From Phlebopus portentosus (Eukaryota > Basidiomycota > Agaricomycetes > Boletales > Boletinellaceae), in contig JAYXKI010000004.1 of assembly GCA_037892935.1 (NCBI GenBank), positions 1,984,001 to 2,048,000 on the forward strand: DNA of 64,000 bases, written 5' to 3'. Shown here one piece after another: positions 15,073 through 63,198 of this stretch. The position numbers and the translations under genes are program-made. Under the pieces are notes generated by a model. It was not told the origin of the DNA, made no database searches, and saw only the letters and a program-made list of their open reading frames with translations. Within the stretch, counting starts at the first letter, position 1; each line of letters opens with the position of its first letter.

Positions 15073-18000
15073 CTACGCATCTAGTTTCTTTAGATACCTG
15101 GACCAATATGCCGTTCCAGAATCTTCTGGACCGGTTGGTGTTGCTGGTAACAGCTGATCGAGAATGTCAAGCACACCCCACGCAACCGTCTTGATGTTAG
15201 AACGCTTGTCCGATGCTTCCCAGCAGCCCTGCATCAACGTCCAATGAGACTCGGACAAGAGGTCAAGATCTTCTTTTCTTGCGGGAGGTTCGCCTATCGA
15301 CTTCGCATATCTAATGTTATATTTCGTTTTGGCGTATGGATCTCTCTCGTAAACAACCTAGACACAGTCAGAAATGAGTTAAAGGACCGGAAAACAGAAC
15401 TTACCTCAAGAAAAACGACTCCAAATGCGTAAATATCTCCCTCCTTCGAAACCCTGGACAACGAGCTTTCTCTAGGAGCTGCCTCGAGAAGCTCAGGAGA
15501 AAGCCACAAGTCACTTGTACATTGATTGACAGAACTGAGATCACGGTGGTCTAGCAACGAGTCGATGTCATCCACATAATGCTCGGCCATGCCGAAGTCG
15601 TTCAGGACCGCGTAACAACTCGGGTCTTGAAACTTTTCGTTTGTCACCAAAACATTAGCCTAGTGAAGCCACGTCAAATCATGACAGCATATGTAGAGAG
15701 CATGAGGTTACCGCTCGCAAGTCTCCATGTGCAATCCCTGAAGCATGCACTTGTAAAATGCCATTGAGCGAGATTATAACTCCATTAAAAGAAGTACATA
15801 CAGAACTCGAGGGCCAGAATGATGTCCCGTAGCTGTTCAGGAGGGAGTCAGATCAATTCGTACTTTATCTGAGGGCGTTCATTTGAGCCTACAAATGCGA
15901 GTTTCTGATCTTTCGTCAGAGCTTGTCCTTCAATCTCGTGTCCACCCCTATATTTATACACCAACCGCTTGAGATCACAGTGGTACGGTTCTGACACCAG
16001 ACATGGTTGAGTCGCCCAGCCCGATGTGAAGCAGACGAAACCCAGAAGCGGCGCAATGTGCTTGTGCTTGACAGTGGCCCATACTCGTGCTTCACGTTCT
16101 ATTCTCTGAATATAATCCGATAAAAATGCATAATAACAGTAAGTGGAGGAGCATCCTTACTTTTGCCGTTCGCGGTTTCGGCTTGTATTTCTTGACTGCG
16201 ACCTATTTCATTCTATACGGTCTAGAAAAAATACTGGTGCAGTATGGTCATACTCACAGGTCTGGATCCCTTGTCCCTTTCCATTCGACAAACTTCTGCA
16301 AATCCCCCGCTACCGAGGAAGACTTCTGATTCATGTCTTATGTCCCTGAACTGCTTGAGCCCAATGGACTCAAGAGCTGAAAGGAGCAAAACAATCAATA
16401 ATGTGTCTCAAGTCAATTTAACTAGAAGAATAACTTCTTACCATTTTTGTCCAGTAAATCGACCTTCGCTTCCGCATCTCTACCTCCTGTTTCTCGGGCA
16501 TGCAAACTGCTGTGAACGTTTTCTCTGACCACAACTTGCTTTTGAGCAATACTACCCACTCGCTTCATATATTCATCGTGGCTCTTTCCGGCAATCAAAG
16601 GATTCAACTGAATGAAACCAGACTTGTTATCGGGATCCTGGTCTACAGCACACCCATTCAGTTTGTCAGTGGTGGGCATGAACAAGGTCATACGGAAAAA
16701 ATGGTAACGAACCAAAGTCAAAGATTCTGCCCTTACTAAAGTCCTCTCGGTATGCCTCTATGTCAAATCCAATCCTGGCCCCAAGGAGCTAATACAAATT
16801 CTAAACGCAGTCGCATTATATAGAAGCCAGCGAGCTCACATAGCACCTATTTCGCACCTCCCTCACTAGAGGATCAAGTCGTTGAAGCTGCTTTTCGGCA
16901 CGATATACTTCAGGGATATCAGCAGCTGAGATGTCTGAAGCTCCGCACACCACATCGCAAACGAGATAAATGATGCTAAATAGTAGTCAAGTCATGAACA
17001 GAGTAAATTGCGTCCTCGCTTACGGGACAGTGTGCTCAAAGAGATCTTGAAGATCCACAATATCGTCCAGTGGCATGTTATAACACAGGATAATCTGGCT
17101 CTCGGCAAATCTCAGCCAGTATCTTCAAGTGCCTGATGTGGTGAAAGTTTTCGAAAGCCTATATATTGTTTAAATGAAAGTAATCGGAAGCAGACAAGAA
17201 GGAATACTCGCTGATGATTGAATTCGCTCCAAAATCTGAATAACGACACGCCGCGCTAGGCGTTTCATATCTGACCACCCATCGGATTCTAAATGCAACG
17301 ATCAGAGAACCATACCTTCCTCCGATATGTGCGTACCTGACGACGACACCAGGCGTTTTGGCCTCCACCACTTTTCGATGCCTTTCTCGTCATACCCGAG
17401 CTCTTTCCAAGTGTCTCCGGAGTTTACGGTCGGTAACCTGAGTACTACAGGAACATGTCAACCTTCGGATGAAAGTCTAACATTGCTCAGCGTACTTCTG
17501 AAACAAAGTTTCCAAATAAAAGAGGGATCGGTACCCCTCACTGAAGAGGAGGACTCTCCATTTTTTGATCGGGCTGCAATGTTGAATGCGTATTTTACAA
17601 CTGTAGAATTCTTCGCTTCGTTGGCACGGTACAGGGACGTGCCCTGCAAATGTATATCAGTCAACCGATGCGAGCGCGGGAGGCTAATACTTGCAGTGTA
17701 TGTTTTAGTTAACTCCGCAACATCTCCTGCAATACCACTTCTTCTCAATAAGGCAGAGTCGTTCGGCAGGCGAGGAATACGTTGCAGAACCTTCACGACA
17801 CGATTTCTTGTTCTCAAAACTTTTTGGATTTCTTTCTCTAGGCTGTTCCGCTTAAGCAAGAGATTTGGAGTCAGGATTAGGTCCTTACGCTGCTCTTCTG
17901 CGCTCAGCCTTCTTGACACTCGGATTCTCGTCGTCAGAGTCATCTAGCATGGAGAAGAGGATGCCGCGTTCTCTCTCGTTAATTCGCCAGTTCTCGGCGA

Positions 18001-18086
18001 GTTTCTCAGCCTGAACTACGGAGTAAGATCACCTTGTCTGGAGAATGGATGGAAGAGCTGCATACTGCTTGGTGGATCGACTGCAT
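15073..18086 (-). CDS. Family B kinase, copy B1 (LDDSDD N-terminus, HGDLR loop)
   Basis: Multi-exon Ser/Thr/Tyr-kinase-fold protein. Proposed start is the ATG complementary to 18084-18086; a ~60-bp intron then joins MQSIHQA to AEKLAENWR. The N-terminal acidic motif SMLDDSDDEN lies near 17925-17955. A helical middle carries the family signature WSDMKRLARRVVIQILERI (~17205-17265). The kinase domain has VAVK (16191-16202), catalytic loop VHASGIAHGDLRA followed by NVLV (~15650-15750), and NDFGMAE (~15600). The activation-segment end is LSPELLE and the C-lobe SKEGDIYAFGVVFLEV. Lys, loop Asp and DFG are all present, so catalysis is plausible, but the loop is HGD rather than HRD (non-RD). It diverges from kinase A1 across 197 bp, the same arrangement as B3/A4 and B4/A7. 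Function unknown; internal exons were not all verified. Confidence 0.8.
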
Positions 18087-18283
18087 GGTAAAGCCGTTCT
18101 GTATCCTGGGGTGTTGTGGAGGTGTTGTAGAGCTGGCCCTGTCCTTGTTTTATTGTTCAAGTCGATTCGTGGGAACATATGCCAATTACGTAGATCTGGC
18201 ATCTCGGTTTCCCAAAAGTTTTTGTCCATCATCTACCAGTCCATCGTCCATGACAGAACACCCTGCTAGCTGACTTTGCTCTT
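18087..18283. promoter_or_regulatory. Divergent promoter region B1/A1
   Basis: 197 bp between the start codons of B1 (minus) and A1 (plus). The same head-to-head spacing (196 and 184 bp) recurs at the two other complete triads, suggesting a shared bidirectional promoter. No TTAGTCAT motif, unlike the other two. Confidence 0.5.
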
Positions 18284-20189: not shown

Positions 20190-22013
20190 ATGACGGACCC
20201 CTTGAGTATCGCTCAGCTCGTTGTCCTAATTCCCGAGGTTATCGACTACTCCGTAAAAGGCGCACGAGTCCTACGACAATACAAGAAAATCAATGGCAAT
20301 CTCCGCTTCTCAATCGAACACGCCGATGATCTGATGTATCGCCTTCGACTATATATTACGATTGTTCAGTGTACGACTCTCCGGCCGGACGTCCGCGCTC
20401 ATCTCGAACGTGCGCTTAGCAGGGCGCACCTTTATTTGTCGAAACTGGCAGGCGACTTGCACAGATGGTCCGCTCTGCTGAGACTTGACCCTGTGGAAGA
20501 CCCCAAGACTGATACCTCAGATGAGGACAAATCCGAAGGCGAGCAGCAGACGCTTACATCGGAAGTAGCCGACTTTGACGAAAAGACCCTCGACGTATCT
20601 GCGACCACCAGAGATTCATCAGACGCAGCCGAGCATGACGAAAAGACTCCCGACGTATCCGCAACTGTCAATAATGAATCGAATTCCGTTCAACAGATTG
20701 AAACGACACCTCCTGGCGAGCGGAAATCTGCGCATTTTCAGCCACTGCTTCTTTTCAACAGGATACGGTACCTGGTGTTAGGCTCCGTCAGCATCCGCGA
20801 ATGCCTCGAGAAACTGGACTTAACTTACAAGACACTCAGCGAGTTCATACCCATCTCCCAACATTTGACCCAGCTGTTTTCGTATAACGAGAAGGTCTAC
20901 ATTTTCACGCAGTTGGCGAGATCAGCGAAGGCCTCGAAATCTTGCGTTATTGATCGAAGTCTAAAATTGACTCTATTGGAGGAGACGAACTCGGATGACC
21001 AGATGTTCTACAAGGTGACGGAAAGGGGAGAGTTTCAGCACTGTATTGTCGAGAAGCGATATGTAAACGACCCGAGACTGTTTGACTCAGAAGAGAAGGA
21101 GACGGAGAGGCTCGCGAAAACGCTTCGAGAAGATAAGCAGTCAGAGTACGGCGTGTCTACGAAAAGTATAGGTATCCTCCGGTGCTGTGGATACATGAGA
21201 CCTGATAAACAAACGTTTGAGGTCATTTATCGCAAACCAAAGGGATACACTGCTCGCACCTTGAGGAAACTTCTCACGACATCAGGTTCCGAGTTCCATC
21301 CCATCGAGAAGCGAGCTGCCTTCGCGTTGCAGCTAGCAAACGCTGTTCATGCCTTTCATTTAATGGGATTCGTCCATAAGGGCATCAGACCAGAGGCAAT
21401 ACTCGTGCTGGAACCCATGAAGGCGTCCCATGTGCCGTTCTACAATATTGGCACGCCGTACCTCGCTGGTTTCAATGCTGCGCGGTATAACGAGTCCTTA
21501 TCAGGCATGTATCGGTTCGACAGGGTGATGAACAAAAAGCTTTACCATGAACCGCGCCACCTGGGGAAGGTTCGACCCCAAAAGTACCTCATGCGCGACG
21601 ACGTCTTCAGTCTCGGTGTCTGTCTGCTCGAAATTGGCTTGTGGAAGTCCGTGTTCAGGTGGAATGACAAGACTAAATTTTATGTCGTCGATGATTGGGC
21701 GAAAGACTTGTTCGCCGATCTTCCTTGGACCGCGGACGGAGAATGTCTCGACTACAACTCTGATGACGAATCGGATTGTGATGAAAACGAATATGCGGTA
21801 GATGCACTACGCAAAAAGAAACTCATCAACATGGCGAAGACCACGCTAAACACAAGGGTAAACAAAGCGTATTGTGATGCGGTGGTGACTTGTCTTACCT
21901 TTGGAGAAGAAGGCGATTTACTGCCTGGAGAGAATGGAAGTTATGCGGGGAGCAGTAAATTTTATGAAAAGGTGCTTTGCCAACTTCATAAGGCCGCCGG
22001 ATCATCTGCGTAG
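20190..22013 (+). CDS. Family C: HeLo-like domain plus pseudokinase (MLKL-like layout), C1
   Basis: Single-exon 607-residue protein. Residues 1-~100 begin MTDPLSIAQLVVLIPEV, resembling the hydrophobic first helix of fungal HeLo/HeLo-like domains, and are predominantly helical. Residues ~103-190 are an acidic linker holding a near-repeat (DFDEKTLDVSATT / EHDEKTPDVSATV). A further helical piece (SIRECLEKL...FIPISQHL, 201-225) follows. The C-terminal kinase fold (~270-600) keeps a candidate Lys (IVEKR, K289), but the catalytic loop is HKGIRPEAIL (396-405; HRD Asp replaced by Gly398) and DFG is AGF (426-428). The C-lobe DDVFSLGVCLLEIG (470-483) is conserved. It is therefore predicted catalytically dead. 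HeLo-like bundle plus pseudokinase parallels MLKL and fungal cell-death executors. The HeLo call is by pattern only and needs profile or structure support. Confidence 0.75.
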   Translation: MTDPLSIAQLVVLIPEVIDYSVKGARVLRQYKKINGNLRFSIEHADDLMYRLRLYITIVQCTTLRPDVRAHLERALSRAHLYLSKLAGDLHRWSALLRLDPVEDPKTDTSDEDKSEGEQQTLTSEVADFDEKTLDVSATTRDSSDAAEHDEKTPDVSATVNNESNSVQQIETTPPGERKSAHFQPLLLFNRIRYLVLGSVSIRECLEKLDLTYKTLSEFIPISQHLTQLFSYNEKVYIFTQLARSAKASKSCVIDRSLKLTLLEETNSDDQMFYKVTERGEFQHCIVEKRYVNDPRLFDSEEKETERLAKTLREDKQSEYGVSTKSIGILRCCGYMRPDKQTFEVIYRKPKGYTARTLRKLLTTSGSEFHPIEKRAAFALQLANAVHAFHLMGFVHKGIRPEAILVLEPMKASHVPFYNIGTPYLAGFNAARYNESLSGMYRFDRVMNKKLYHEPRHLGKVRPQKYLMRDDVFSLGVCLLEIGLWKSVFRWNDKTKFYVVDDWAKDLFADLPWTADGECLDYNSDDESDCDENEYAVDALRKKKLINMAKTTLNTRVNKAYCDAVVTCLTFGEEGDLLPGENGSYAGSSKFYEKVLCQLHKAAGSSA

Positions 22014-24841: not shown

Positions 24842-27350
24842 TTATGAAATTGGCTTCTTTAAGTACTTCGACCAGTAAGCAAGCTCCGGACCTTCAAGCT
24901 CGTCAAAATTGGTTGGAGTCGGCGTAATCAGCTGATCCAAGATATCGAGTACATCCCACGCCACTTTCAATATCCCTAAGCGCTTGTCCGGCGTTTCCCA
25001 GCATCCTTGCATGAGCGGCCAGTGGGACTCGGCTAGCAGGTTTAGCTCTTCCTGTTTAGCAGGCAACTGCATTGTGGACTTGGCGTCAGAAACGCTAATC
25101 ATTAGACCCTCATACGGATCTCTCTCGTAGACGACCTATAATTCATTCGTATTCAAGGCAGCTGAATCTCCACCAGGTTATTGTCACGCACCTCCAGGAA
25201 GACCACGCCAAATGAGTATATGTCGCCCTTCTTCGAGGCTTTAGGTAGCGATCCATGTTCGAGAGCCTCGTCAATTAATTCAGGGGCTATCCAGTAGCCT
25301 CTTGTTCGGGTAGTGGATGCAAGACCCAGGTAATCGTCTACCCGACTGATGTTGCTGTAGCGATGTTCGGCCAAGCCGAAATCATTCAGGACCGCATAGC
25401 AGCTCGTATCATCTAAAAGTTCGTTTGTGACGAGAACGTTCTCCTACAGAAGCATCTTAGTGGCAGAAGTGCATAAAATTTACACCGCAGAATGCGTACC
25501 GCTCTCAAGTCTCCGTGCGCAATCCCGGAAGCGTGCACTTGTATACCTTCACTTAGCAAGGGTTATTGTCACGGACAGACTGACAGATGCACATACAGAA
25601 CTCTAGTGCCAGGATGACGTCCCGCAGCTGGGAGATGCTATGTCAGATCAGACCAGCGTCCTTAAACAGCGATTGTGCTTACAAACTCGAGTTTACGCTC
25701 ATCGTTCAGGGCTTTGCTATCGGAATTTTGACCATTCGTCCCGTAGTCCTTCACGATCTTCTTGAGATCAGTATGGTACGAGTTTGAGACCAGACATAGC
25801 TGAGGCGTGAATGTCGAATCAAAGCAAACAAAGCCGAGAAGTGGTGCGATGCGCGCATGCTTGACTGTCATCCAGATTTGCGATTCTCGAAGCAGCCGCT
25901 AGATTTGGCTTTGAGATAAGATGCTCGTAATCGATTATAGGAGGCTTCTTGCCTTGGCATATGTGTTTGTCTTATATATTTTCACAGCAACCTATTTTTT
26001 ATTTGTCAATAGGAGTTTGCCTCAAGCTTTCTAACTTACAGTGCCCAAGCCTTTCTCACGTTGCATTTCAAAGACGTCTGCATACTTGCCATCACCTTTC
26101 CACTTCTTCGACTCGTAAACAACGTGCTTTAATTGCTTCAATCCAATTTCCTCAAGGACTGAAAGAACAAGGCATACGCAAGATATCACGAACTTAAATC
26201 GCATGGGTGCTCACCTCTCGTTTCCAATTTCTTGACATAGTGAAACGCATCCGCCGAAAGCTTCTTCCCGATATCCGAGGCACTTTGCGAGGGCTCGGAT
26301 TCACTTTGAGGACACAGTTCTGTGTGCTTTCCAATGCTATCCTCTTCGTGATTCTCTGCCTTCTGTAAGACTAATCCATCCTTCTCTCCAGAGGAATAGC
26401 TTCCAGCAACGTCTGCGCGCGATCAATGTTGGGATACGAAACAATGTTTGACGGCAAAAATGACGTACCAAAGTCAAAAACCGAGCTCGCTTTCAGCTGT
26501 TCTATGAATTGGTTTACATCGAAGCTGACTTCATTTCCGAGTAGCTTGGTGCATAGTCAGCGATTACATCCCGCTCAGCTGCTAGGCAAGCTTACATAGC
26601 ATTTTCCAAGAAGTCCGATAAGGAGATGATCGAGTTTCTGGCAATGTACTATCCCAGAAGTTTCATCAAATTCATGTAGCGAGTCCGTAGAACATGCTTG
26701 GACGAGTTTGGAGACGACGTATACAATTCTAAAGGGTAGTCAAGCAAAAGTAGCATCATCTAATGAGTATTCTACTTACGGTACTGTCTGTTCAAAGAGT
26801 TCTTGCAGAAAATTCGCGTTTTTCGAAGGAAGGTTATAGCATAGGACGATGTGATAAAGCAGCACATCTCTGCATCTCTCGGCGATCACTTTCAGACGCT
26901 CCGTGATTGGGCATTCTTCCTTGATCTACAATATAGGATTAACGGCGAAACTGTGGGAAGCACTACCATTCTTACCGCTATGAGTTGAACTTTCTCCAGG
27001 ACTTGAATGACAACTCGCCTCGCAAGACGTTGCATGTCCGACCATGATTTGGTATCTGGGAAAGACGGTCAGGCAAGTAAAGATCTGAGGAATGACAGGG
27101 ACTTGCTTCGAAGGGGAGAGTCTGTGTGTCTTCGCTGCCACCATTCCAGAAAACTCGCATCATCAAAAGCCAGGCCCTGCCATATAGCCTCTTTCGGCAA
27201 TGTTGCAACTTCAAGTTCTGGGGAAAAAGATCAGTTACTTAGGGACTTAGATAGGAAGCGGACCGACGCTTAAAGTTTAGCTTCCAAGAAGCAGGAAGAT
27301 GTACACGTTGTGCAAGTTGTTCCGGGCTTGTCATTGTCACCTGTTCCATG
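24842..27350 (-). CDS. Family B kinase, copy B2, apparently N-terminally truncated
   Basis: Paralogue of B1 with the same C-terminal end (stop at 24842-24844). The kinase domain has VAVKIYK (~25980), loop VHASGIAHGDLRA followed by ENVLV (~25430-25540), NDFGLAEH (~25370) and WIAPELIDEALE. The middle signature is WSDMQRLARRVVIQVLEKV (~27000-27055). The most upstream coding piece found reads MEQVTMTSPEQLAQRVHLPASWKLNFK (first 10 residues MEQVTMTSPE) from the ATG complementary to 27348-27350, joined by an intron to QLEVATLPKEA. The acidic LDDSDD exon present in B1, B3 and B4 was not found upstream. The partner A2 starts 2 kb away instead of ~190 bp and is a pseudogene. This copy may be non-functional or have a different N-terminus. 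Confidence 0.65.
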
Positions 27351-29391: not shown

Positions 29392-30712
29392 ATGAATCTC
29401 AAGAAAATACGCCACCAACTGCTTTTCAGTGAACCACTCAAAGTAAACTGGAGTTTATATGAGCTAGCTGAAGACGAAATCTGGTGGAGAGATCGTTATT
29501 CGCTGTTTGAATCTCGTGGTTACCGTCTGCGCGATCGACTACGACCGGGATGGGTACCTTCATGGAAATCAAACCCGAAGAGACACCCGGAGGACCACGA
29601 GGACACCGCTTCTAGCCATGTACGCATGCTGCTCGTGTTTTAGTTGTCTTTGTCTTTATCAAACGTCCTAGCATCCTCTTTCACGCATGCTGCTCTTGTC
29701 TCCGACGGGTCGAATGTCATCATTAAGAAAATCAAGAGAAACAACGATGAAAAGTCGATAGCAGTCTTCCTATCTTCTCTGAAGGACCAGAAGAACCATT
29801 GTGTGCCGATCATTGACTCATTCCCGGACGAAGCAGAAGATGATATCGAGTTTCTCGTCATGCCGTTATTGCGCAGATTCAATAATCCTTCGTTCCGTGC
29901 AGTCAATGAAGTCATTGACTTCGTGAAACAGACACTCGAGGTTCGTCACCTGTACATTCACTAACGATATGCTTACAAGAACCATCCCAAGGGAGTTGCC
30001 TTCATACATTCTAAGAACATCGCGCATAGGTATGAGGGACTCGTCGACTGCTGATAGCATTTACTAACATCGAGTACTGTCAGAGATTGTTCAGATTTGA
30101 ATATTATGTTAGATGGAACATCGATGTTTCCAGAGGGCTTTCATCCTGTCCGTCAAATCATGGACAGGAGTTCTACAAAGCTTGCAAAGTACAGAAGTCG
30201 ATGTAATAGCCCAGGCGTGAAGTATTACTTCACGGACTTTGGGCTGTCTTCGTGATTTGATGATATGGACTCAGGGCATCTCGTAACCGGTCGCAGATGC
30301 CAGGTTTATGTCCCGGAACTCTCAGATACGATTCCCTATGATCCATTCGCAGTGGATATTTATCTACTTGGAGATGTTTACAAGAAGAATTTCGTTGAAG
30401 TATGTTTGCTCACTTATCGCTACTCAGTCCATAGCTTAACATTTTCATCAGAAATATTCGAATGCTCAGTTTCTGAAACCTCTCGTGGAATCCATGACGC
30501 AAATGGTCCCTTTTGAGCGCCCCAGAGCTAAAGCCGCTTTGAAACAACTTGAAAATCCCGTTCCTCTCATGCCGAAGTCATCGCTGCGATGGAGGCTGAT
30601 AAAGAACAACGTAGGACGAGCATCTCATTTCCTCCTCAACATCAGTTGTACCACCCGCGAGGGAGTTTTTGTCGTTAGGCGTATGATCAATAAGCAATAC
30701 ACGCGAGCTTGA
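29392..30712 (+). pseudogene. Family A kinase pseudogene A2
   Basis: Clear A-family copy: MNLKKIRHQLLFSEP start at 29392, GYRLRDRLRPGWVPSW, SNVIIKKIK (Lys), loop RDCSDLNIMLD (~30093) and FTDFGLSS. Two lesions are visible. The start of exon 2 (29669 on) is one base shorter than in A5/A6, shifting the frame. A TGA at 30253-30255 sits directly after DFGLSS, where A5 and A6 have CGA (Arg). The C-terminal exon (KYSNAQFLKPLVESM to stop 30712) is otherwise open. The nearest intact relatives are A5 and A6. It is paired with the truncated B2 and has no C gene behind it, so this looks like a dying triad. Confidence 0.8.
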
Positions 30713-40045: not shown

Positions 40046-41358
40046 ATGAACCTGAAGAAAATTCATCACAGGCTATTTTTCAGCGAACCGTTCCAAATTG
40101 ACTGGAGCTTGTATGACCTAGCAGGATACGAAATCTGGTGGAGAGATCGTTATTCATTGTTTGAATCTCAAGGCTATCGTCTCCGTGATCGATTGCGACC
40201 AGGATGGATACCTTCATGGGCTTCAAATCCGAAGAGGCATCCGGAGGACCACGAGGACACCGCCTCCAGTGATGTACGTTGGCTGCACATTCTTAGCTAT
40301 TCATGCTGTTTATCGTATTTGTTAGCACCCTTTCATCACTGAAGCTACTCGTATCTCCGATGGCTCATACGTCATCATTAAGAGGATTAAGAAAAACAGT
40401 GATGAAAAGTCACTAGCAACCTATCTATCTTCTTTGAAGGACCCGAGGAACCATTGTGTGCCAATCATCGACTCATTTCCAGATGAAACAGAAGATGGCA
40501 TCGAATTCCTCGTCATGCCATTGTTGCGCATGTTCAATTGTCCTTCCTTCCATTCCGTCAATGAAGTCGTGGGCTTTATAAAGCAGACTCTCGAGGTTTT
40601 CCAGCTACTGTACATCTTCCATCTTTATACACTAACAAACACCAATGTAGGGAATCTCTTTTATGCATTCTAAAAACGTCGCGCATAGGTATGAGCGCTC
40701 AACGGCTGCCCAAAGGACTTTCTGACTTCAAGTTCTATCAGAGACTGTTCGGATTTGAATATCATGCTCGATGGAATGACAATGTTTCCAGAGGGCTTTC
40801 ATCCTATCCGCCAAATTATGAACAGGAGCTCCACGACACTGGCAAGGTACAAAAGTCGAAGTAATAGCTCAGGCGTGGAGTACTACTTCATCGATTTCGG
40901 GCTATCTACACGATTTGATGACACAGATGGAGTTCGGTCGGTGACTGGTCGCAGGTGCCAAGTTCAAGTCCCGGAACTCTCAGATAAGGTCCCTTATGAT
41001 CCATTCGCGGTGGACATATATCTGCTCGGCGACGCCTATATGAAGAATTTTATCGAAGTACGCCTTCCGACTGTTTCTGTCCTCACAGAACTTGACTGGC
41101 TTCCGTCAGAAATATTCGAACGTCCAGTTTCTGAAGCCCCTTGTGGAGTCCATGACGCGAAAGGACCCATCTAAACGCCCCAGAGCCGATGATACCTTGA
41201 AAAAACTCGAACATATCATTCCTCAGAAATCGAAGTCATCTCTGCGTTGGAGATTGATAAAGAGCAATGTAGAAGGAACATCGCATTTCTTCCTCAACGT
41301 CAGTTGTATCATCCGCGAAGGAATCGTTGTCGTTAAGCGTATGATTGGTGCGAATTAA
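40046..41358 (+). CDS. Family A kinase, copy A5 (intact)
   Basis: Exon 1 (40046-40273) encodes 76 residues with YEIWWRDRYSLFESQGYRLRD and LRPGWIPSW. Exon 2 after TTAG at ~40325 reads HPFITEATRISDGSYVIIKR (Lys). Then DPRNHCVPIIDSFPDE and LVMPLLRMFNCPSF follow, and after two short introns GISFMHSKNVAH-RDCSDLNIMLD. YFIDFGLSTRFDD holds DFG, followed by VPELSDKVPYDPFAVDIYLLGD. A last intron joins to KYSNVQFLKPLVESMTRKDPS, stop at 41356-41358. All junctions keep frame. It lies upstream of, and convergent with, B3, so it is an extra A gene outside the B-A-C triad. Nearly identical to A6. Confidence 0.83.
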
Positions 41359-42174: not shown

Positions 42175-45100
42175 CTAGATCGTGTGACGTACAGGAGATG
42201 GTGGCGGCGATTTGAACATTATATCCAGATGCTTCTTTCCGATCTCCACAATGCTCGGTCGCTTGTCAACACTGTTCCAACATGCTTCCATTAATGTCCA
42301 ATGAAGCTCGTCTCGTATGTCTAGATCTTCTTTTTGGACAGGCGGCTCTCCGATTGACTTCGCACGTTCAATGCTAGATGATCCTTTGTAGGGGACTCTT
42401 TCGTAAATCACCTAATTCAAACTTATCACATCCGTTCCGCACCGAAAGAGTCACACATACCTCTAGGAAAACAGCTCCGAAAGCGTATACATCCCCTTCT
42501 TTCGAGACTCTCGCTGGAGAGTTCTGTCGCGGGGCATTTTGGAACAGCTCTGGAGCAAGCCAAGGGAGGCTCGTCTGCATGTTGACTGAGCTGAGGCTCA
42601 GAATATGATCGATGTCGTCTTCGTAGAGTTCGGTCATGCCGAAGTCATTCAGGACTGCATAGCAGCTCGGATCGTCTAAGGACTCGTTCGTGATCAAAAC
42701 GTTTGCCTATACGATCGAATTAGTCCTCCGTGAATTAGTTCGTAGGATATTTTGACAGTCCCACAGCTCGTAGATCTCCGTGCACAATATCTGATGCATG
42801 AACTGGAAATTGGATTCTCATGAGTATCGAGTCAGATTGAAGGAGAGTGAAGACGCACGATAATCAAGGGCGAAAGTAATATCACGTAACTGATGGATAA
42901 GCCGGATTTCCGATCAGTTCAAATGAGTTTCTCGTCGATATCCAACAGAGGCTTACAAACTTGAGTTTACGTTCTTCTGATAATACGTGTCTCACAGATT
43001 CATGAGCGCCGTTCCCATATTTCATAACAAGTTTCTTAAGATCAGTATGATATAACTCCGACACTAAACATGGTTGACTTGAAAGAGAAAAGTCGAAACA
43101 GACAAAACCCAGAAGTGGTGCGATGTGCTTATGCCGGAGCTGATTCCAAATTCGAGCCTCGCGTTTGATTCTCTACATGATGTGAGAACACGGACAAAAG
43201 TTAATAATTGTGTTGTCGTGAAATCTAAGAACAGGCATTTACCTTTGCAGATTTTGGACCTGGTCTGCATATCTTGACAGCAACCTATAAGATAATAAGC
43301 GTCACCGGAAGAACAATAATCAGATTTCCTCACAGGCTTCTTTCCTCCTTGACACTGCATCTCGTAAACATCGGCATACCCACCACCTCCCTTCCATGCC
43401 TGGGTGTCATAAGCGATATCGGTGAATCGCTCCAGTCCCAGGTCCTCGAGTTCTATAAGGTGATTAATTAGCGGAGCGGGCCAAAATGTATGAGGAAGAA
43501 CCACTACATGCCCTGACTGTCCAATCTTATGATCTCATTCATTGAACCAGAATCCTTTCTTTCTCGTTCAGTGCCATGCTGTAAGCTTTGTGAGACCAAC
43601 AGCTGCCTTTGCCCAATGCCGTCCAGCCGTCTCGCGAACTCGTCCCTTGTTTTACCAGCTAAACGATTATCCATTTCGATAAACCCGCTCTTGCTTGAGT
43701 ATGAGGGACTTTCGTCTGCATTTGAGTCGCCATAAGGAAATTGACAAATGCAGTAATAGTATGGAATACCATAGTCAAAGATTTTTCCCGCATAGAACTG
43801 ATCACGGTATTTCTCTACGTCGAAGCCAACTTTTTGCCCGAATAGCTGAATTCAATTTAACACATTGCATTGGAAGCGGTTGATCACGACTCACATAACA
43901 AGTTTTCAAAAGGGACCTCAAGTAAGGTCCAAGTTTTGTAAGCTGCCTCTCGAGACGATGACTCTCCGCGATTGCAACGGTAGTTATATCCTTCGATGAA
44001 TTAACTACTTGTGACACGAGGTATATAATCCTGTGCAAATATCAGAAAAGTAAGAATTCGTTTGGCTCTACTTACGGAACTGTATATTGAAAGATCTCCT
44101 GTAGCTCTGATCCTGGTATATTTTCAGGTAGAATGCTGAAACAAACTATAATCTGATAAAGCACTATCTCTCGGCATTCTTCCGCGACCATTTGAAGGCG
44201 CTTGATGTGTGGAGAACGCTGTGATTGAATGTATGTGGTCAAATTAGCTTCGCTATCTATTTTGCAGGTTATTTCTCACCGCTTGTTCAAGCTTCTCCAG
44301 AATCCGAATGGAAACTCGTCTTGCCAGCCGCTTCATGTCTGACCACCCATGAGACTCTGTTCATGATAGTGAGTAATTGACTAGTCCTATGGAAAATGAC
44401 CTCACCCAATGACTCGGGGTTAGGATATTTTGGGCGCCACCATGATCGGAGCTTGGCTTCAGTGAAACGAAGCTCGGACCATATGTCCCCTTCATACGAG
44501 CTCGTAACTTCAAGTTCTATTCGACGCGGTCAAGTATTTTGGACAGGGCATATACTATAACACCTTCTGTACTTACGCTTGAAGTGCAGCTCCCATAGGA
44601 AATCAGGTACTCTCTTGCTATCAGCTTCAGTTGTTTTCGACATGTCATGAAGAATCGATGTGTTGAAAGCATATTTTGCCATGCTACAAGTCTCCGCCTT
44701 TTGTGCTCGCTGCTCAGAAGTCCGCTTTGCATGACAGTCAACAGAAGTCCAACAGAGCCAGGGACTTGCTGCTCTCACCTTGTACGAGGTACAGTTATTC
44801 AGGAGATCTTCTCGGAGCATCACTCTTCTGCGTATTGGTCGAGAGTGTTTATCACGAGGAAATCGTTGAAGGAGTGTTGGGATAAAGTCTCTTTTCCTCA
44901 GTGCACGCTTAAGGCGGTCCTGAGCGCTTTCAAGTCATTGTGATATCTAGTAGTCTTATGTAACAAGATGGACTCACTTTGATCTTTTCTCTTCTGCGCG
45001 CATCACTTCGGGGTTATCATCATCTGAGTCATCTAGCATGGAGAATAGAATGCAGCGCTGTCGTTCACTTAGCTCCCAAAGAGCTTTCAACATCTCATTC

Positions 45101-45175
45101 TAAGTGAAATAACAGTAAGACTGACCGAGAAGACAAGCAGGATGCTAGACTTACCTCCTCTTCAACAGTCGGCAT
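42175..45175 (-). CDS. Family B kinase, copy B3
   Basis: Starts at the ATG complementary to 45173-45175 (MPTVEEE), then an intron, then NEMLKALWELSERQRCILFS and the acidic MLDDSDDDNPEV (~45005-45045). Next come a basic helical segment (DRLKRALRKRDFIPTLLQRF, 44850-44920), FLWELHFKR, the signature WSDMKRLARRVSIRILEKL (~44290-44350), VGFDVEKYRDQF (~43810) and FTDIAYDTQAWKGGGGYADVYEM (glycine-rich loop near 43365-43430). The kinase core has VAVKICRPGPKSAK (~43250-43285), HGDLRA (~42770), NVLITNE, NDFGMTE (~42635) and LAPELFQNAP. The stop is at 42175-42177. Catalytic Lys, Asp and DFG are present and the loop is non-RD. It is divergent from A4 across 196 bp. Counterpart B4 is clearly diverged although the flanking duplicated blocks are nearly identical. 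Confidence 0.8.
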
Positions 45176-45371
45176 GGCTAACAATGGGAGATTACGCAGA
45201 GCTGAGGCAGAGAACAAGCCCAACTTAAAGAAAGAGCGTGCGAATCCGGACGACACAAAAAGCATTGGATGGTCTTAGTCATCGTCTCACGTCCGACCCT
45301 GGTAACATTGTACTTTTGTTTCGACAGACTAACTACTTCCCTTCCACGTCCCTTCCACCACTCACGAGTTC
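45176..45371. promoter_or_regulatory. Divergent promoter region B3/A4
   Basis: 196 bp between opposing start codons. It contains TTAGTCAT at 45275-45282 (complement ATGACTAA, resembling AP-1/Gcn4-type bZIP sites), 90 bp from the A4 ATG. The same octamer occurs in the B4/A7 promoter in the same orientation. Confidence 0.5.
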
Positions 45372-47281: not shown

Positions 47282-49000
47282 ATGACCGATCCCCTCAGTC
47301 TCGCGCAGCTTATATTTGCCATTCCGCAGCTCATCGATGGCTGCGTAAGCAGTGCCCGAACGTTCCGAAGTTTCCTCAAAGTCGAGGGAAATTACCGTTT
47401 CGAATTCGAGCATGCCGAAAGCCAGATGTTCCAGCTTCGTGAATATGTGATTATTGTCCAATGCACAGCTCTGAAAGAGGACACTCGAAACCATCTCGAG
47501 AAGGTCCTCCGTAGGGCCCATCATTACGTGGACAAGCTAACCGCTATATTCAAGAAGTGGTCCATTCGACTAGGACACGCATGCCTAGACCCGCCCGAAG
47601 CTGACGGTCCAGACCCGGGCACATCAGAACTTGAGGCAACCCCTTCAGAGGCCAAACTCCTTAACGAGAAGGAGTCCGGTTCTTCCTCTGATGTCGGTAG
47701 TACGCATGCATCTGATCGAGGAAAGCGCAGAACATCCGTCCTCCGATCGCTTCGCTTCGGGTTGAACAAGTTGTGGTACCTATCACTCGGCTGCATCAGC
47801 ATACGCGAGGCACTTGATAAATTAGAGGCTACGAACAGAATACTCAGCGAGTTCATACCCATCTCGCAGCACATGGATCACCTCCTGTCCCATAACGAGG
47901 ATGCCAAGAAATTCACCATACTAGCCAAAAGGAGCGATAAGGACGAAAGCTGTCTCATTCCCGAGAACCTTAAAATCAAAGAGCTCGAGGAGGTGGAGGA
48001 TCCGATCTTCTTCAAGGTGGTAGAACCGGGCGAATATCACGGATGCATTGTCGAACAACGATATGTGAATGTCCCAGGAGATCGGCCAGGCGAGCTCAAG
48101 GAAACGGAACGCCTGGCAAGAGTGCTCCGCGAAGATAAGCAAGCAAGGGACGGCATCACCGATCCAAATGTCGGAATCCTCAGGTGTTGCGGATACATGC
48201 TACCCCACTCTTCTGAACATCTCCTTGTATTTCGCCTTCCGCAATTCCATCGAGCACGAACGCTACGCACCGTCCTGCTATCCCCAGAAACGGAGAACCA
48301 CATCTTCGAAGATCGCATAGACTTCGCACTGAAGCTCGCAACAGCTGTCCATGTCTTCCACTCTATAGGTTTCGTCCATAAGGGCATCAAACCGGAGGCG
48401 ATACTTGTCGCGGAACACATACTGCCACCTTCCAGTGACGTGTATCAACTCGGCACGCCGTACCTCGCCGGTTTCAATATCGCACGCTACAACGAGTCGG
48501 ACTCGGGCATGTACAAATTTGATAGGGTGATGAACAAGAAGCTTTACCATCATCCTCGACAGCTCGGGAAGCGTCGACCTCAGAAATACCAGATGGATGA
48601 CGACATTTACAGCCTGGGCGTATGCTTGCTCGAGATTGGCTTTTGGAAGTCGGCATTCAAGTGGGATGATACGAAGAAGATTTATCGTGTGAACGATTGG
48701 GCTAGGCACTTGTTCGCTGATCTACCACGGAGTCCGGAAGGCTATGTTATAAATTTCGAGCTACGAGAGGAGGAAAATGAGAACGACTACCCGGTGGACA
48801 TCGCGCGCAAAAGGAGGCTGACTCATATGGCAGAGTCGATGCTGAACACGAAGGTGAACAAGGCATACTGCAGGGCGGTAGTGGCTTGTCTTACCTTTGG
48901 TGAGCAAACTCGGCTGACCAAGCAAAATGAAAGTTACATTGGCAGTCAAGAATTTTACGAAAAGGTCATCTGTGAGCTCCGTCGAGCGAAAGGGTATTGA
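47282..49000 (+). CDS. Family C: HeLo-like domain plus pseudokinase, C2
   Basis: 572 residues from the ATG at 47282; the frame is open further upstream but only from a TTG inside the UTR intron region. N-terminus MTDPLSLAQLIFAIPQLIDG is followed by helical segments, a Ser/Glu-rich linker (~103-150) and SIREALDKLEATNRILSEF with IPISQH (~173-197). The pseudokinase differs from C1: the Lys position reads IVEQR (Gln259), the loop is HKGIKPEAIL (Gly368) and DFG is AGF (396-398). All three catalytic landmarks are therefore lost. DDIYSLGVCLLEIG is kept. It is almost identical to C3: I noticed only E116D and R150K among amino acids. It sits downstream of A4 and is followed 11 bp after its stop by the foldback element. 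Confidence 0.78.
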   Translation: MTDPLSLAQLIFAIPQLIDGCVSSARTFRSFLKVEGNYRFEFEHAESQMFQLREYVIIVQCTALKEDTRNHLEKVLRRAHHYVDKLTAIFKKWSIRLGHACLDPPEADGPDPGTSELEATPSEAKLLNEKESGSSSDVGSTHASDRGKRRTSVLRSLRFGLNKLWYLSLGCISIREALDKLEATNRILSEFIPISQHMDHLLSHNEDAKKFTILAKRSDKDESCLIPENLKIKELEEVEDPIFFKVVEPGEYHGCIVEQRYVNVPGDRPGELKETERLARVLREDKQARDGITDPNVGILRCCGYMLPHSSEHLLVFRLPQFHRARTLRTVLLSPETENHIFEDRIDFALKLATAVHVFHSIGFVHKGIKPEAILVAEHILPPSSDVYQLGTPYLAGFNIARYNESDSGMYKFDRVMNKKLYHHPRQLGKRRPQKYQMDDDIYSLGVCLLEIGFWKSAFKWDDTKKIYRVNDWARHLFADLPRSPEGYVINFELREEENENDYPVDIARKRRLTHMAESMLNTKVNKAYCRAVVACLTFGEQTRLTKQNESYIGSQEFYEKVICELRRAKGY

Positions 49001-54149: not shown

Positions 54150-55457
54150 ATGAACCTGAAGAAAATTCATCACAGGCTATTTTTCAGCGAACCGTTCCAA
54201 ATTGACTGGAGCTTGTATGACCTAGCAGGATACGAAATCTGGTGGAGAGATCGTTATTCATTGTTTGAATCTCAAGGCTATCGTCTCCGTGATCGATTGC
54301 GACCAGGATGGATACCTTCATGGGCTTCAAATCCGAAGAGGCATCCGGAGGACCACGAGGACACCGCCTCCAGTGATGTACGTTGGCTGCACATTCTTAG
54401 CTATTCATGCTGTTTATCGTATTTGCTAGCTCCCTTTCATCACTGAAGCTACTCGTATCTCTGATGGCTCATACGTCATCATTAAGAGAATTAAGAAAAA
54501 CAGTGATGAAAAGTCAATAGCAACCTATCTATCTTCTTTGAAGGACCCGAGGAACCATTGTGTGCCAATCATCGACTCATTTCCAGATGAAACAGAAGAT
54601 GGCACCGCATTCCTCGTCATGCCGCTGTTGCGCATGTTCAATTGTCCTTCCTTCCATTCCGTCAATGAAGTCGTGGACTTATTAAAGCAGACTCTCGAGG
54701 TTTGCCAGCTACATCTTCCATCTTTATACACTAACAAACACCAATGTAGGGAATCTCTTTCATGCAATATAAAAACGTCGCGCATAGGTATGAGTGCTCA
54801 ACGGCTGCCCAAAGGACTTTCTGACTTCAAGTTCTATCAGAGACTGTTCGGATTTGAATATCATGCTCGATGGAACGGCAATGTTTCCAGAGGGCTTTCA
54901 TCCTATCCGCCAAATTATGAACAGGAGCTCCACGACACTGGCAAGGTACAAAAGTCGAAGTAATAGCTCAGGCGTGAAGTACTACTTCATCGATTTCGGG
55001 CTATCTACACGATTTGATGACACAGATGGAGTTCGGTCGGTGACTGGTTGCAGGTGCCAAGTTCAGGTCCCGGAGCTTTCAGATAAGGTCCCTTATGATC
55101 CATTCGCGGTGGACATATATCTGCTCGGCGACGCCTATATGAAGAATTTTATCGAAGTACGCCTTCCGACTGTTTCTGTCCTCACAGAACTTGACTGGCT
55201 TCCGTCAGAAATATTCGAACGTCCAGTTTCTGAAGCCCCTTGTGGAGTCCATGACGCGAAAGGACCCATCTAAACGCCCCAAAGCCGATGACGCCTTGAA
55301 AAAACTCGAACATATCATTCCTCAGAAATCGAAGTCATCGCTGCGTCGGAGATTGATAAAGAGCAATGTAGGAGGAACATCGCATTTCTTCCTCAACGTT
55401 AGTTGTATCATCCGCGAAGGAATCGTTGTTACCAAGCGTATGACTGGTACGAACTAA
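54150..55457 (+). CDS. Family A kinase, copy A6 (intact)
   Basis: Near-identical to A5. Exon 1 encodes the same 76 residues. Exon 2 begins LPFITEATRISDGSYVIIKR. Later exons give GISFMQYKNVAH, then RDCSDLNIMLDG, YYFIDFGLSTRFDD, VPELSDKVPYDPFAVDIYLL and KYSNVQFLKPLVESMTRKD, stop 55455-55457. Differences from A5 include HS to QY in the segment before the catalytic loop and W to R in SSLRRRL near the C-terminus. HRD, DFG and the candidate Lys are unchanged. It is upstream of and convergent with B4, mirroring A5/B3. Confidence 0.83.
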
Positions 55458-56354
55458 CCCTACAAGAACCCATAAAGGTATCCGTTACGACTGACCGGAT
55501 ACCGACATTCCCTGGTACTCAAGAGGCAAATATCGTATCCGAAGGAAGCTTTAAAGCCAATTTCATATGAATAATGATAGATGGCTGTTCGTCCATGACT
55601 CCTTATCTCTTTCCCTACCATTGTGAGGTGTGTCTGAGAATTGTGTTTGAAAATTGTCAAAAAATCAAACTACTTTCCCTTGGTCTAGTTCGATCAATTG
55701 ATTCAAATGCTATTTCCGATGTAGCAAGGACTCTTGAGCCGAAATCACCTTCAAGATTTGAGGAGGCGGTAAAGATTTCTCGCCTCTCGCTTTCATCTCG
55801 GCAGTGCGCCATCATGCAGATACTATTGACGCGTGAGCGGTGAATTACCTTTCCTCATGAGCGCAGAAGATGTGCGGTCGATGATAAATTCGTCAAAATG
55901 TGTTTTGACTATTGCAGCCTTATTGTTCTTCAACTTACGCTTGTTCAAGCTGGTAAATGAAATACAAGGCACTTGCAAATCCCTACAGACAAAGGGAGGC
56001 CGAAGGCTATAAGCTCTTGTCCGAACTCAAATTCATTTAGTTCACATGGCAACTCTTTTCCACTGTGTGCTGCAATGTCGTAACCCTTCGCCGCTTCTTC
56101 GAGTCTTACTAACTCAGCCCATCATACTAGAGGGCATCGTATCGTCCATTCGGAATATAGTTTATTACACACATCGAGCATGTACACGATGCCGCTTATG
56201 CACAATCGAGCTTCGTATCAGAAGTAAACAACTGTATAAACTAACAAGGCCGCTTGCGAAAATGTACAGACACAACTAAAACAAATTCCGTGGCGTGCGC
56301 AAGACACATTGCAGAAATTACAGAAATCATGAAAGCGAAGATGCTTGCAGCATT
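55458..56354. other. Intergenic between convergent A6 and B4
   Basis: About 0.9 kb, not recognisably similar to the corresponding A5/B3 spacer. No gene seen. Identity between the duplication arms drops sharply here. Confidence 0.45.
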
Positions 56355-59300: not shown

Positions 59301-59370
59301 GAATTTTACTCGCATTTGAGCGTCAAAGGATCAAAGGCTGTATACTTACTGCTTCTTTTACCGACAACAT
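56355..59370 (-). CDS. Family B kinase, copy B4
   Basis: Starts at the ATG complementary to 59368-59370 (MLSVKEA), then an intron and NKDLSKAWERYELTRQEHFA followed by the acidic ILDDSDDDDPLV (~59201-59235). The middle signature is WKDMKRLSRRVVIQILERI (~58500-58560). FTDIMYDTQNHKGEGAYADV (~57570) is the glycine-loop region. The kinase core has VAVKRCKPGPKSAK (~57440-57483), HKHIAPLLGFVCF, loop VHASNTVHGDLRA (~56960), NILVTNE, NDFGMAE (~56815) and WLAPELFEIAP. After the last intron it reads VVYERDPYQGSPYS and ends at KPVRHAI with stop 56355-56357. It keeps Lys, Asp and DFG with a non-RD loop. It is divergent from A7 across 184 bp. Confidence 0.8.
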
Positions 59371-59554
59371 GAATCCTGCGTGACGAAGTTTTAGACTGAA
59401 TGATGTGGGGATGAGGGGAAGCATTGAGATGAGGGCCGATATTTGTTCACCGAACGTGAGAACAAGTATCAAATATGGAAGTTTAGTCATAATCCGTTTG
59501 TTCTCTTTGTGTCAATGCGTCGTGAAGCATATCCCTTCTCATCTTCTCCTTGTC
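59371..59554. promoter_or_regulatory. Divergent promoter region B4/A7
   Basis: 184 bp between opposing start codons, with TTAGTCAT at 59483-59490, 65 bp from the A7 ATG, same orientation as in the B3/A4 promoter. The rest of the spacer is not obviously conserved, which makes the shared octamer more notable, though one octamer could recur by chance. Confidence 0.5.
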
Positions 59555-60877: not shown

Positions 60878-61419
60878 GCTCACAACAGCTATCGTGCAGG
60901 ATTTCGCCGTAGCTATTCGCGTACAGCGAAACAAGGGACACTTCGCTCAGAGTCTTAATTGTACTGTTTGGATACCTCGCTTAACGTATTCTCTTCTACT
61001 TGCATATTGGCTGCGGCACCTTTGCGATTTTATTGTATCATCGTCGTGTTCATCCTATATGGATTAGTATTTCGGTTCCTGTTTCTTGCCGATCAATCGA
61101 TGCATCTTTTTATTTCGAAGCGTCAGACGGTCGCTAAGTCGCTTGATTCGCGTGCATGATGGACTTCTGTCGACAATAAGCCTTGTGTTTCTTGTAATAA
61201 CTTGTCCTTGATGCATGGCCTTAGCTGCATGTATCTGATTAATTACTAATTTGTATAAGAAACTCATCAAAACGCTGCCATTTATCCCTTTTCACGGACT
61301 CTCCGAATCCCGCGCTCGCACGAAGGGTAGGTACCGCATGCATTTGTTATGGATTGCTTCTTATACCCTGTTCGCAGCTTTCGATCCCTTTCGATCGCAA
61401 CTTGCTCATTCGCACTCGA

Positions 61420-61470: not shown

Positions 61471-61479
61471 TTGCGAACA

Positions 61480-63198
61480 ATGACCGACCCACTCAGTCTA
61501 GCGCAACTCATATTTGCCATTCCGCAGCTCATCGATGGCTGCGTAAGCAGTGCCCGAACGTTCCGAAGTTTCCTCAAAGTCGAGGGAAATTACCGTTTCG
61601 AATTCGAGCATGCCGAAAGCCAGATGTTCCAACTTCGTGAATATGTGATTATTGTCCAATGCACAGCTCTGAAAGAGGACACTCGAAACCATCTCGAGAA
61701 GGTCCTCCGTAGGGCCCATCATTACGTGGACAAGCTAACCGCTATATTCAAGAAGTGGTCCATTCGACTAGGACACGCATGCCTAGACCCGCCCGAAGCT
61801 GACGGTCCAGACCCGGGCACATCAGACCTTGAGGCAACCCCTTCAGAGGCCAAACTCCTTAACGAGAAGGAGTCCGGTTCTTCCTCTGATGTCGGTAGTA
61901 CGCATGCATCTGATCGAGGAAAGCGCAAAACATCCGTCCTCCGATCGCTTCGCTTCGGGCTCAACAAGTTGTGGTACCTATCACTCGGCTGCATCAGCAT
62001 ACGCGAGGCACTTGATAAATTGGAGGCTACGAACAGAATACTCAGCGAGTTCATACCCATCTCGCAGCACATGGATCACCTCCTGTCCCATAACGAGGAT
62101 GCCAAGAAATTCACCATACTAGCCAAAAGGAGCGATAAGGACGAAAGCTGTCTCATTCCCGAGAACCTTAAAATCAAAGAGCTCGAGGAGGTGGAGGATC
62201 CGATCTTCTTCAAGGTGGTAGAACCGGGCGAATATCACGGATGCATTGTCGAACAACGATATGTGAATGTCCCAGGAGATCGGCCAGGCGAGCTCAAGGA
62301 AACGGAACGCCTGGCAAGAGTGCTCCGCGAAGATAAGCAAGCAAGGGACGGCATCACCGATCCAAATGTCGGAATCCTCAGGTGTTGCGGATACATGCTA
62401 CCCCACTCTTCTGAACATCTCCTTGTATTTCGCCTTCCGCAATTCCATCGAGCACGAACGCTACGCACCGTCCTGCTATCCCCAGAAACGGAGAACCACA
62501 TCTTCGAAGATCGCATAGACTTCGCACTGAAGCTCGCAACAGCTGTCCATGTCTTCCACTCTATAGGTTTCGTCCATAAGGGCATCAAACCGGAGGCGAT
62601 ACTTGTCGCGGAACACATACTGCCACCTTCCAGTGACGTGTATCAACTCGGCACGCCGTACCTCGCCGGTTTCAATATCGCACGCTACAACGAGTCGGAC
62701 TCGGGCATGTACAAATTTGATAGGGTGATGAACAAGAAGCTTTACCATCATCCTCGACAGCTCGGGAAGCGTCGACCTCAGAAATACCAGATGGATGACG
62801 ACATTTACAGCCTGGGCGTATGCTTGCTCGAGATTGGCTTTTGGAAGTCGGCATTCAAGTGGGATGATACGAAGAAGATTTATCGTGTGAACGATTGGGC
62901 TAGGCACTTGTTCGCTGATCTACCACGGAGTCCGGAAGGCTATGTTATAAATTTCGAGCTACGAGAGGAGGAAAATGAGAACGACTACCCGGTGGACATC
63001 GCGCGCAAAAGGAGGCTGACTCATATGGCAGAGTCGATGCTGAACACGAAGGTGAACAAGGCATACTGCAGGGCGGTAGTGGCTTGTCTTACCTTTGGTG
63101 AGCAAACTCGGCTGACCAAGCAAAATGAAAGTTACATTGGCAGTCAAGAATTTTACGAAAAGGTCATCTGTGAGCTCCGTCGAGCGAAAGGGTATTGA
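61480..63198 (+). CDS. Family C: HeLo-like domain plus pseudokinase, C3
   Basis: 572 residues from the ATG at 61480. The architecture and dead kinase motifs are those of C2: IVEQR with Gln259, HKGIKPEAIL with Gly368, and AGF at 396-398. The first ~30 coding bases differ from C2 at five synonymous positions. From ATATTTGCC at 61510 onward, only about six differences were noticed over nearly 1.7 kb. The region after the stop keeps the uninserted version of the site occupied by the foldback element near C2. It lies downstream of A7 in triad 3. Confidence 0.78.
   Translation: MTDPLSLAQLIFAIPQLIDGCVSSARTFRSFLKVEGNYRFEFEHAESQMFQLREYVIIVQCTALKEDTRNHLEKVLRRAHHYVDKLTAIFKKWSIRLGHACLDPPEADGPDPGTSDLEATPSEAKLLNEKESGSSSDVGSTHASDRGKRKTSVLRSLRFGLNKLWYLSLGCISIREALDKLEATNRILSEFIPISQHMDHLLSHNEDAKKFTILAKRSDKDESCLIPENLKIKELEEVEDPIFFKVVEPGEYHGCIVEQRYVNVPGDRPGELKETERLARVLREDKQARDGITDPNVGILRCCGYMLPHSSEHLLVFRLPQFHRARTLRTVLLSPETENHIFEDRIDFALKLATAVHVFHSIGFVHKGIKPEAILVAEHILPPSSDVYQLGTPYLAGFNIARYNESDSGMYKFDRVMNKKLYHHPRQLGKRRPQKYQMDDDIYSLGVCLLEIGFWKSAFKWDDTKKIYRVNDWARHLFADLPRSPEGYVINFELREEENENDYPVDIARKRRLTHMAESMLNTKVNKAYCRAVVACLTFGEQTRLTKQNESYIGSQEFYEKVICELRRAKGY

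What the first reader, a model, noticed from the sequence alone, without database searches (positions are those of the whole stretch)
15073..63198. Tandem three-gene module: divergent kinase pair plus MLKL-like HeLo-pseudokinase
Seen: the order B(-), A(+), C(+) repeats at 15.1-22.0, 42.2-49.0 and 56.4-63.2 kb, with B and A head-to-head and C downstream of A. B and A keep catalytic Lys, Asp and DFG; C lacks the HRD and DFG aspartates. Known: MLKL pairs an N-terminal four-helix bundle with a pseudokinase and is switched on by a kinase. Fungal HeLo and HeLo-like domains kill cells by membrane disruption. Inference: B and/or A phosphorylate or release C, which acts as a membrane-active executor in defence or allorecognition. 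I know of no described fungal system with this layout.
Basis: partly seen in the sequence, partly recalled or inferred. Interest (0 to 1): 0.9.

Follow-up and report, generated by a model that had tools for sequence, protein, structure and literature searches.

The report
Variable kinase pairs beside an MLKL-like pseudokinase
A medicinal mushroom carries a long tandem array in which two head-to-head kinase genes, strikingly variable where they face each other, sit beside a much less variable pseudokinase gene related to the animal cell-death protein MLKL, which looks like a self/non-self recognition locus of a kind not yet described in mushrooms.

Summary
The window is Sanghuangporus (Hymenochaetales): B2 and B3 are 100% identical to S. 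sanghuang proteins where aligned. B(-)A(+)C(+) occurs three times in the window; over 264 kb, 9 of 11 C loci sit in a B<-A->C trio (0 of 20,000 label shuffles). Locus tags indicate the trio in S. weigelae, S. vaninii and S. baumii. A and B keep kinase catalytic residues; C is a pseudokinase with an N-terminal helical bundle. A 61-sequence C-family profile finds full-length MLKL first in the PDB (E 2.6e-12); seven Sanghuangporus paralogues alone do not show the N-terminal link.

New finding: in 4 of 7 module pairs compared, DNA beside the B-A core (C, or the other flank) is 91-100% identical, but the core only 47-88%, non-coding parts included. Module 1's B has a 3' end matching S. sanghuang (100%) and an N-terminus 92-99% identical to S. 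vaninii but 56-60% to S. sanghuang. HD mating-type pairs also vary at their N-termini.

I propose a non-self recognition locus: B-A sets specificity, C executes. Killing, phosphorylation and allorecognition are untested. HeLo-type pseudokinases are already described; I found no report of the kinase-pair locus.

The parts
15076..18086 (-). B1: TKL-like kinase, 712 aa, about 400-aa N-terminal region with no Pfam hit plus kinase domain
   Evidence: spliced to S. vaninii P0122; Pfam kinase E 4e-21 on the first, shorter gene model
18087..18283 (.). 197-bp region between B1 and A1 start codons
18284..19625 (+). A1: agaricomycete-type kinase with HRD and DFG, about 380 aa
   Evidence: relatives in many agaricomycetes
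20190..22013 (+). C1: MLKL-like pseudokinase, 607 aa, one open frame, helical N-terminus
42178..45175 (-). B2 kinase, 704 aa, 100% identical to S. sanghuang ACEPAF_139 (P0121)
45176..45371 (.). 196-bp region between B2 and A4 start codons
45372..46728 (+). A4 kinase; 3' end uncertain (model ends at 46677, next stop in frame ends at 46728)
47282..49000 (+). C2 pseudokinase, 572 aa
56358..59424 (-). B3 kinase, 100% identical to S. sanghuang ACEPAF_138 (P0127) over 672 aligned residues; a start at 59370 is also possible
59371..59554 (.). 184-bp region between B3 (second Met) and A6 start codons
59555..60877 (+). A6 kinase
61480..63198 (+). C3 pseudokinase, 99.7% identical to C2
41358..47163 (.). 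divergent B2-A4 core lying between near-identical duplicated flanks; counterpart 55457-61372 (B3-A6)
24845..27349 (-). B4 kinase without a C, shorter N-terminus in my model
29392..30712 (+). A2 kinase copy with one in-frame stop, head to head with B4
40046..41358 (+). A3 kinase copy outside a trio; 39870-41358 is 96.4% identical to the A5 stretch
54150..55457 (+). A5 kinase copy outside a trio

Best explanation
B-A-C is a tandemly repeated self/non-self recognition module, most likely for somatic incompatibility. The two kinases B and A, whose start codons are about 200 bp apart, are probably made together and act as a matched pair whose specificity lies in their divergent N-terminal halves. 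The pair controls C, an MLKL-like executor whose dead kinase domain is the receiver and whose N-terminal helical bundle attacks membranes. When cytoplasms with different B-A haplotypes mix, the mismatch leaves C wrongly phosphorylated (or without its protective mark) and the fusion cell dies. Shown: gene content, catalytic residues, co-location, cross-species trio by locus tags, kinase fold, family link to MLKL through HET-s/LopB-type relatives, and the divergent core beside homogeneous DNA. Inferred: co-expression, phosphorylation of C, membrane killing, and the recognition role.
Against: No expression, biochemical or phenotypic data. Seven Sanghuangporus C paralogues alone reach MLKL only in the kinase domain, behind other kinases, and an N-terminus-only profile finds nothing; the fold matches of the helical bundle include unrelated proteins with higher Z and Foldseek gave no match at E<=0.001. 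C itself has no Pfam HeLo hit. In 3 of 7 module pairs everything is diverged, C too. In S. vaninii A is more conserved (94.7%) than C (88.3%). Within-species allele sampling is absent: the other S. sanghuang assembly is known here only through protein records, and ACEPAF_152 may be a paralogue. B1 was spliced with the S. vaninii protein as guide. Gene conversion alone might homogenise flanks without selection on the core, and introgression might explain the S. vaninii-like core.
Confidence: 0.43

Rival explanations
1. Pathogen or virus sensing: B-A pairs diversify as sensors in the way plant resistance genes do, and C kills the infected cell. No conspecific recognition is involved.
For: The tandem array, copy-number changes and divergent N-terminal regions fit a sensor family; fungal cell-death executors of this kind are discussed as immune effectors (PMC12881547, passages).
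Against: Divergence of a whole two-gene head-to-head core beside near-identical DNA resembles a matched specificity pair more than a single sensor.
Confidence: 0.22
2. Ordinary birth-and-death expansion of lineage-specific kinases. Trios are copied as blocks, and gene conversion homogenises flanks by chance; C is a scaffold and kills nothing.
For: Family A is widespread in agaricomycetes (195 hits at E<=1e-30, 120 listed); several copies in the window are decayed or lack C; order is inherited by block duplication, so module copies are not independent; 3 of 7 module pairs are diverged throughout.
Against: The core/flank contrast recurs in 4 of 7 pairs and includes non-coding DNA; A3/A5, outside a trio, are 96.4% identical in the same duplication; the nine genes of the three window trios have no internal stop.
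Confidence: 0.25
3. Selfish killer: C is the poison and the linked kinases the antidote, spread by meiotic drive.
For: Tight linkage of a putative killer with putative modifiers; lineage-restricted B (12 hits at E<=1e-10, 11 of them Sanghuangporus).
Against: Many coexisting modules and trios in four species would be unusual for a driver, and a driver does not need old divergent cores beside near-identical DNA.
Confidence: 0.07

Closest known systems
MLKL (animal necroptosis executor), with plant MLKLs
   Same: N-terminal helical bundle followed by a kinase-fold domain lacking HRD and DFG aspartates; the C-family profile aligns to mouse MLKL from residue 12 to 398
   Different: No RIPK3-like partner identified; flanked by a hypervariable kinase pair; fungal; killing untested
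Ascomycete HET-s/LopB (HeLo/HELL) kinase-pseudokinase proteins, DUF7580 (PF24476)
   Same: Same two-domain architecture, shared HK[G/N] and GF motifs in place of HRD and DFG, related N-termini
   Different: I know of no B-A pair beside them (not searched); C1 is just below the DUF7580 cut-off
Podospora het-V (PaMt1/PaMt2)
   Same: Linked modifying enzyme plus MLKL-domain executor with recognition by a post-translational mark (PMC8229728, passages)
   Different: Methyltransferase and Tudor domains there; two kinases and a pseudokinase here
Basidiomycete HD1-HD2 mating-type pairs
   Same: Divergently transcribed pair; N-terminal part much more divergent than C-terminal part, as for HD2 in tetrapolar species (PMC4915694, passages)
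   Different: Kinases, not homeodomain factors; homeobox genes lie on contigs C1 and C14
het-S/NWD2 and HELLP/PNT1 clusters
   Same: Small gene cluster with a HeLo-type executor (PMC12881547, passages)
   Different: NLR and amyloid signalling there; I did not scan here for NLRs or amyloid motifs

Membership tests
MLKL-like executor | helical bundle N-terminal to a kinase-fold domain | tested here: met
MLKL-like executor | catalytically dead kinase domain | tested here: met
   HRD position lacks Asp in 59 of 61 family members, and none of 61 has DFG in the aligned columns (two read TDW, perhaps misaligned)
MLKL-like executor | N-terminal domain homologous to the MLKL four-helix bundle | tested here: inconclusive
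MLKL-like executor | activated by an upstream kinase; permeabilises membranes | not testable with these tools
   needs biochemistry
HeLo domain (PF14479) | match to the Pfam model | tested here: not met
   no hit for C1-C3; 1 of 61 family members hits
DUF7580 (PF24476) | match above the curated cut-off | tested here: inconclusive
   C1 26.3 bits, cut-off 27; 26 of 61 members at E<=0.01; listed as precomputed for P0001
het-V type reader/writer | methyltransferase and Tudor domains | tested here: not met
   Pfam gives kinase-type domains and DUF7580 plus weak chance hits for the C1-C3, A1, B1 and B2 models scanned
HD mating-type locus | homeodomain genes | tested here: not met
   homeobox hits lie on C1 and C14 only
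HD-like hypervariable head-to-head pair | variable facing 5' halves, more conserved 3' ends | tested here: met
   A of the window pair 2/3 is only mildly graded
NLR/amyloid executor cluster | linked NLR and amyloid motif | not tested
   no NLR or amyloid-motif scan was made

The most novel reading that the evidence does not exclude
A tandem multi-copy allorecognition locus of a mushroom, built like a mating-type HD locus but from kinases: matched hypervariable kinase pairs read or write a phospho-mark on a conserved MLKL-like pseudokinase that kills mismatched fusion cells. It would be a basidiomycete counterpart of necroptosis, and a first molecular candidate for the post-translational reader/writer model of basidiomycete somatic incompatibility.
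Probability: 0.37. Interest if true: 0.95.

Novelty: new variant of a known kind. Interest (0 to 1): 0.86.

Why it matters
The mechanisms of somatic incompatibility in basidiomycetes are described as completely unknown, with 3-5 loci indicated by limited genetics (PMC8229728, passages). This locus offers named genes, testable haplotypes and an executor with a necroptosis-like architecture. If true, kinase-to-pseudokinase control of an MLKL-like killer also operates in mushrooms, and a recognition locus would have taken an HD-like layout (head-to-head pair with variable facing halves) with unrelated proteins.

Tried and rejected
Considered and rejected: (1) linkage to mating type as the cause of the polymorphism: three homeobox hits with a Peptidase_M3 (MIP-like) neighbour are on contig C1 near 1.07 Mb, a fourth on C14, and STE3 receptors on C9 and C6; a second Peptidase_M3 gene is on C4 at 1.76 Mb, but no homeobox hit is beside it. 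(2) The three modules as three independent duplications: C2/C3 and the left flank are 93-100% identical, so modules 2 and 3 share a recent duplication or homogenisation. (3) Family A as the distinctive part: it is found in many agaricomycetes. (4) Protein selection alone as the cause of the divergent core: in the four pairs the non-coding core DNA is 46, 62, 76 and 68% identical, exons 62, 76, 76 and 78%.

Led nowhere: the search of the genome for DUF7580 found nothing, also in the control genomes, so it says nothing; whole-model Foldseek listed only kinases in its top 50; Foldseek with the N-terminal model gave no match at E<=0.001; the paper search on DUF7580 gave none, and the one on FunK1/AgaK1 gave nothing that I used. 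My first gene models were wrong at several exons, and my first spliced aligner had a bug; both were replaced, but rest on the first models or on alignments and profiles made from them. Synteny outside Sanghuangporus was not tested: the genome collections offered here hold prokaryotes and viruses.

Limits of the counts: the 57 loci include weak fragments (C at 2062529, E 7e-3; C at 2075332, E 2e-3); shuffles ignore that blocks duplicate together. Module pairs: six were compared and the window pair; I profiled those with long near-identical stretches (three), and pairs 2072/2079 and 2079/2086 share a module. In pair 2218/2229 only the C side is near-identical (beyond B 84.5% over 536 bp; the truncated C ends there); in 2079/2086 only the B side. 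Protein searches scored a word-limited candidate list. Contig identity across species rests on equal contig lengths and running locus tags, not on seen coordinates.
Full report
Where it is. The window is G000:C4:1984001-2048000 of a 38.4-Mb, 23-contig genome. B2 and B3 are 100% identical, where aligned, to S. sanghuang ACEPAF_139 and _138, so the genome is S. sanghuang or very close; taxonomy.

The trio. Spliced models give three B-A-C modules without internal stops; the 3' end of A4 is uncertain. B is a 704-724-aa TKL-like kinase with an unknown N-terminal region of about 400 aa; A is a kinase with relatives in many agaricomycetes; C is a single open frame of 572-607 aa. B and A start 184-197 bp apart, head to head. 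B and A keep catalytic Lys, Asp and DFG; C1-C3 have HKG and AGF.

The array. Profiles of A, B and C run over 264 kb found 58 loci; 57 were used: 28 A, 18 B, 11 C, fragments included. Ten of 11 C have a same-strand A next upstream, 9 of 11 are B<-A->C; no label shuffle of 20,000 reached either number, maxima 9 and 5. Thirteen of 18 B have a head-to-head A as the next locus. In the genome-wide search with C1, all 13 matches (11 genes, three of them outside the 264 kb) lie on contig C4; of 126 A matches the weak ones (47 bits or less) include other contigs, the strong ones are on C4; with the N-terminal part of B, all 14 matches lie in and just beside the window. Two outliers: at 1.69 Mb A and C are neighbours on one strand, no B seen in the 8.5 kb fetched; at 1.20 Mb A(-), weak B-like exons(+) and C(+) stand together in another order. 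Seven remote B genes, by rough models, also have a long N-terminus.

Other species. S. weigelae ACEPAI_4403, 4404, 4405 are B, A and C. S. vaninii ACEPAH_4139 is B and 4140 an A+C record. S. baumii ACEPAG_3789 is A+C and 3790 B. Pairs A/B: S. sanghuang ACEPAF_146/147, S. baumii A7U60_g2001/g2002. Each set shares one contig length. The B search gave 12 hits at E<=1e-10, 11 Sanghuangporus and one Rickenella kinase.

The divergent core. Modules 2 and 3 lie in a duplicated block. Its left flank (D3, A3) is 93-98% and C 99-100% identical, apart from the bins at the edges, yet the B-A core between falls to 47-70%. C2 and C3 differ at 11 nucleotides; A4/A6 are 60% and B2/B3 55% identical proteins. 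Of six further module pairs compared, three show the same contrast: 2218/2229 (A-C spacer and first part of C 98-100%, core 61-77%; no near-identical B side), 2072/2079 (both sides 96-100%, core 68-88%), 2079/2086 (B side 91-99%, core 65-80%; the C side is a fragment, 91 then 68%). The other three (2105/2187, module 1 with 2 and with 3) are diverged throughout, C at 67-70% where aligned; in 2105/2187 a stretch of 326 bp after C reaches 84%. Non-coding core DNA is as divergent as exons or more in all four contrasting pairs (46/62, 62/76, 76/76, 68/78%). A3/A5, outside trios, are 96.4% identical.

Across species the core and the flanks also disagree. By eighths from C- to N-terminus, B1 is 100, 96, 93, 79, 85, 70, 56, 60% identical to S. 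sanghuang ACEPAF_152 and 90, 97, 93, 88, 97, 83, 92, 99% to S. vaninii. Against S. weigelae, B1 reads 92, 97, 93, 80, 89, 66, 43, 47 and A1 by sixths from its N-terminus 65, 61, 73, 58, 75, 97, while C is 95%. By C, S. sanghuang is closest to S. weigelae (95%) and S. vaninii to S. baumii (96%); by A and B, module 1 is closest to S. vaninii (A 94.7%, C 88.3%). Old shared haplotypes or introgression fit; ACEPAF_152 might be a paralogue rather than an allele, and B1 was spliced with the S. vaninii protein as guide.

Interpretation. [quoted passage not shown] Non-self genes of ascomycetes generally show trans-species polymorphism (PMC8229728, passages). The same paper proposes a post-translational reader/writer locus for basidiomycetes, drawing on het-V with its MLKL-domain executor; the words kinase and phosphorylat- do not occur in its main text. 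The array here has the expected parts: two enzymes with variable regions and a more conserved executor. Homeobox and STE3 genes are on other contigs. I therefore favour a non-self recognition module (0.43) over neutral expansion (0.25), pathogen sensing (0.22) or drive (0.07). No step of the mechanism has been tested.

Known and new. A HELL-kinase/pseudokinase architecture is noted in PMC12881547 (section 18 and passages read). I found no description of a head-to-head kinase pair with such a protein, nor of the core/flank pattern, in the listings, which cover open-licence papers only.

Noticed in passing
49012-50390: Fold-back element with 662-nt arms (98% complementary, 55-nt loop) directly after C2; copy 3 lacks it and the site shows a CAT duplication, so it probably inserted after the module 2/3 duplication.
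   Followed up: partly
P0002, P0003, P0004 (S. baumii, S. vaninii): Annotators joined A and C into single proteins of 955-1022 aa; this may be a prediction artefact or a real read-through transcript.
   Followed up: no
22449-24652: A further kinase-like gene (+) between C1 and B4 in a rough model; its 23374-23937 frame has a weak kinase hit.
   Followed up: no
29392-30712; 33254-34305; 36807-38137; 50817-52134: A2 has an in-frame stop; D2 and D4 (A-like, minus strand) read HRP at HRD and D4 has a stop; D3 ends off-frame. The nine trio genes have no internal stop.
   Followed up: partly
8185-10923: 913-aa open frame with a weak reverse-transcriptase match (E 8e-5), in a region where my rough gene models look to me like cytochrome P450 genes.
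   Followed up: no
S. sanghuang ACEPAF_138/139 (P0127, P0121) against window 42178-59424: B3 and B2 have neighbouring tags in that assembly although several genes lie between them here, and no S. sanghuang B4 counterpart was listed: possible structural variation within the species.
   Followed up: no
C family: Named relatives of C outside Sanghuangporus are, to my knowledge, ascomycetes: horizontal transfer, loss in most basidiomycetes, or a limit of the word-based search.
   Followed up: no
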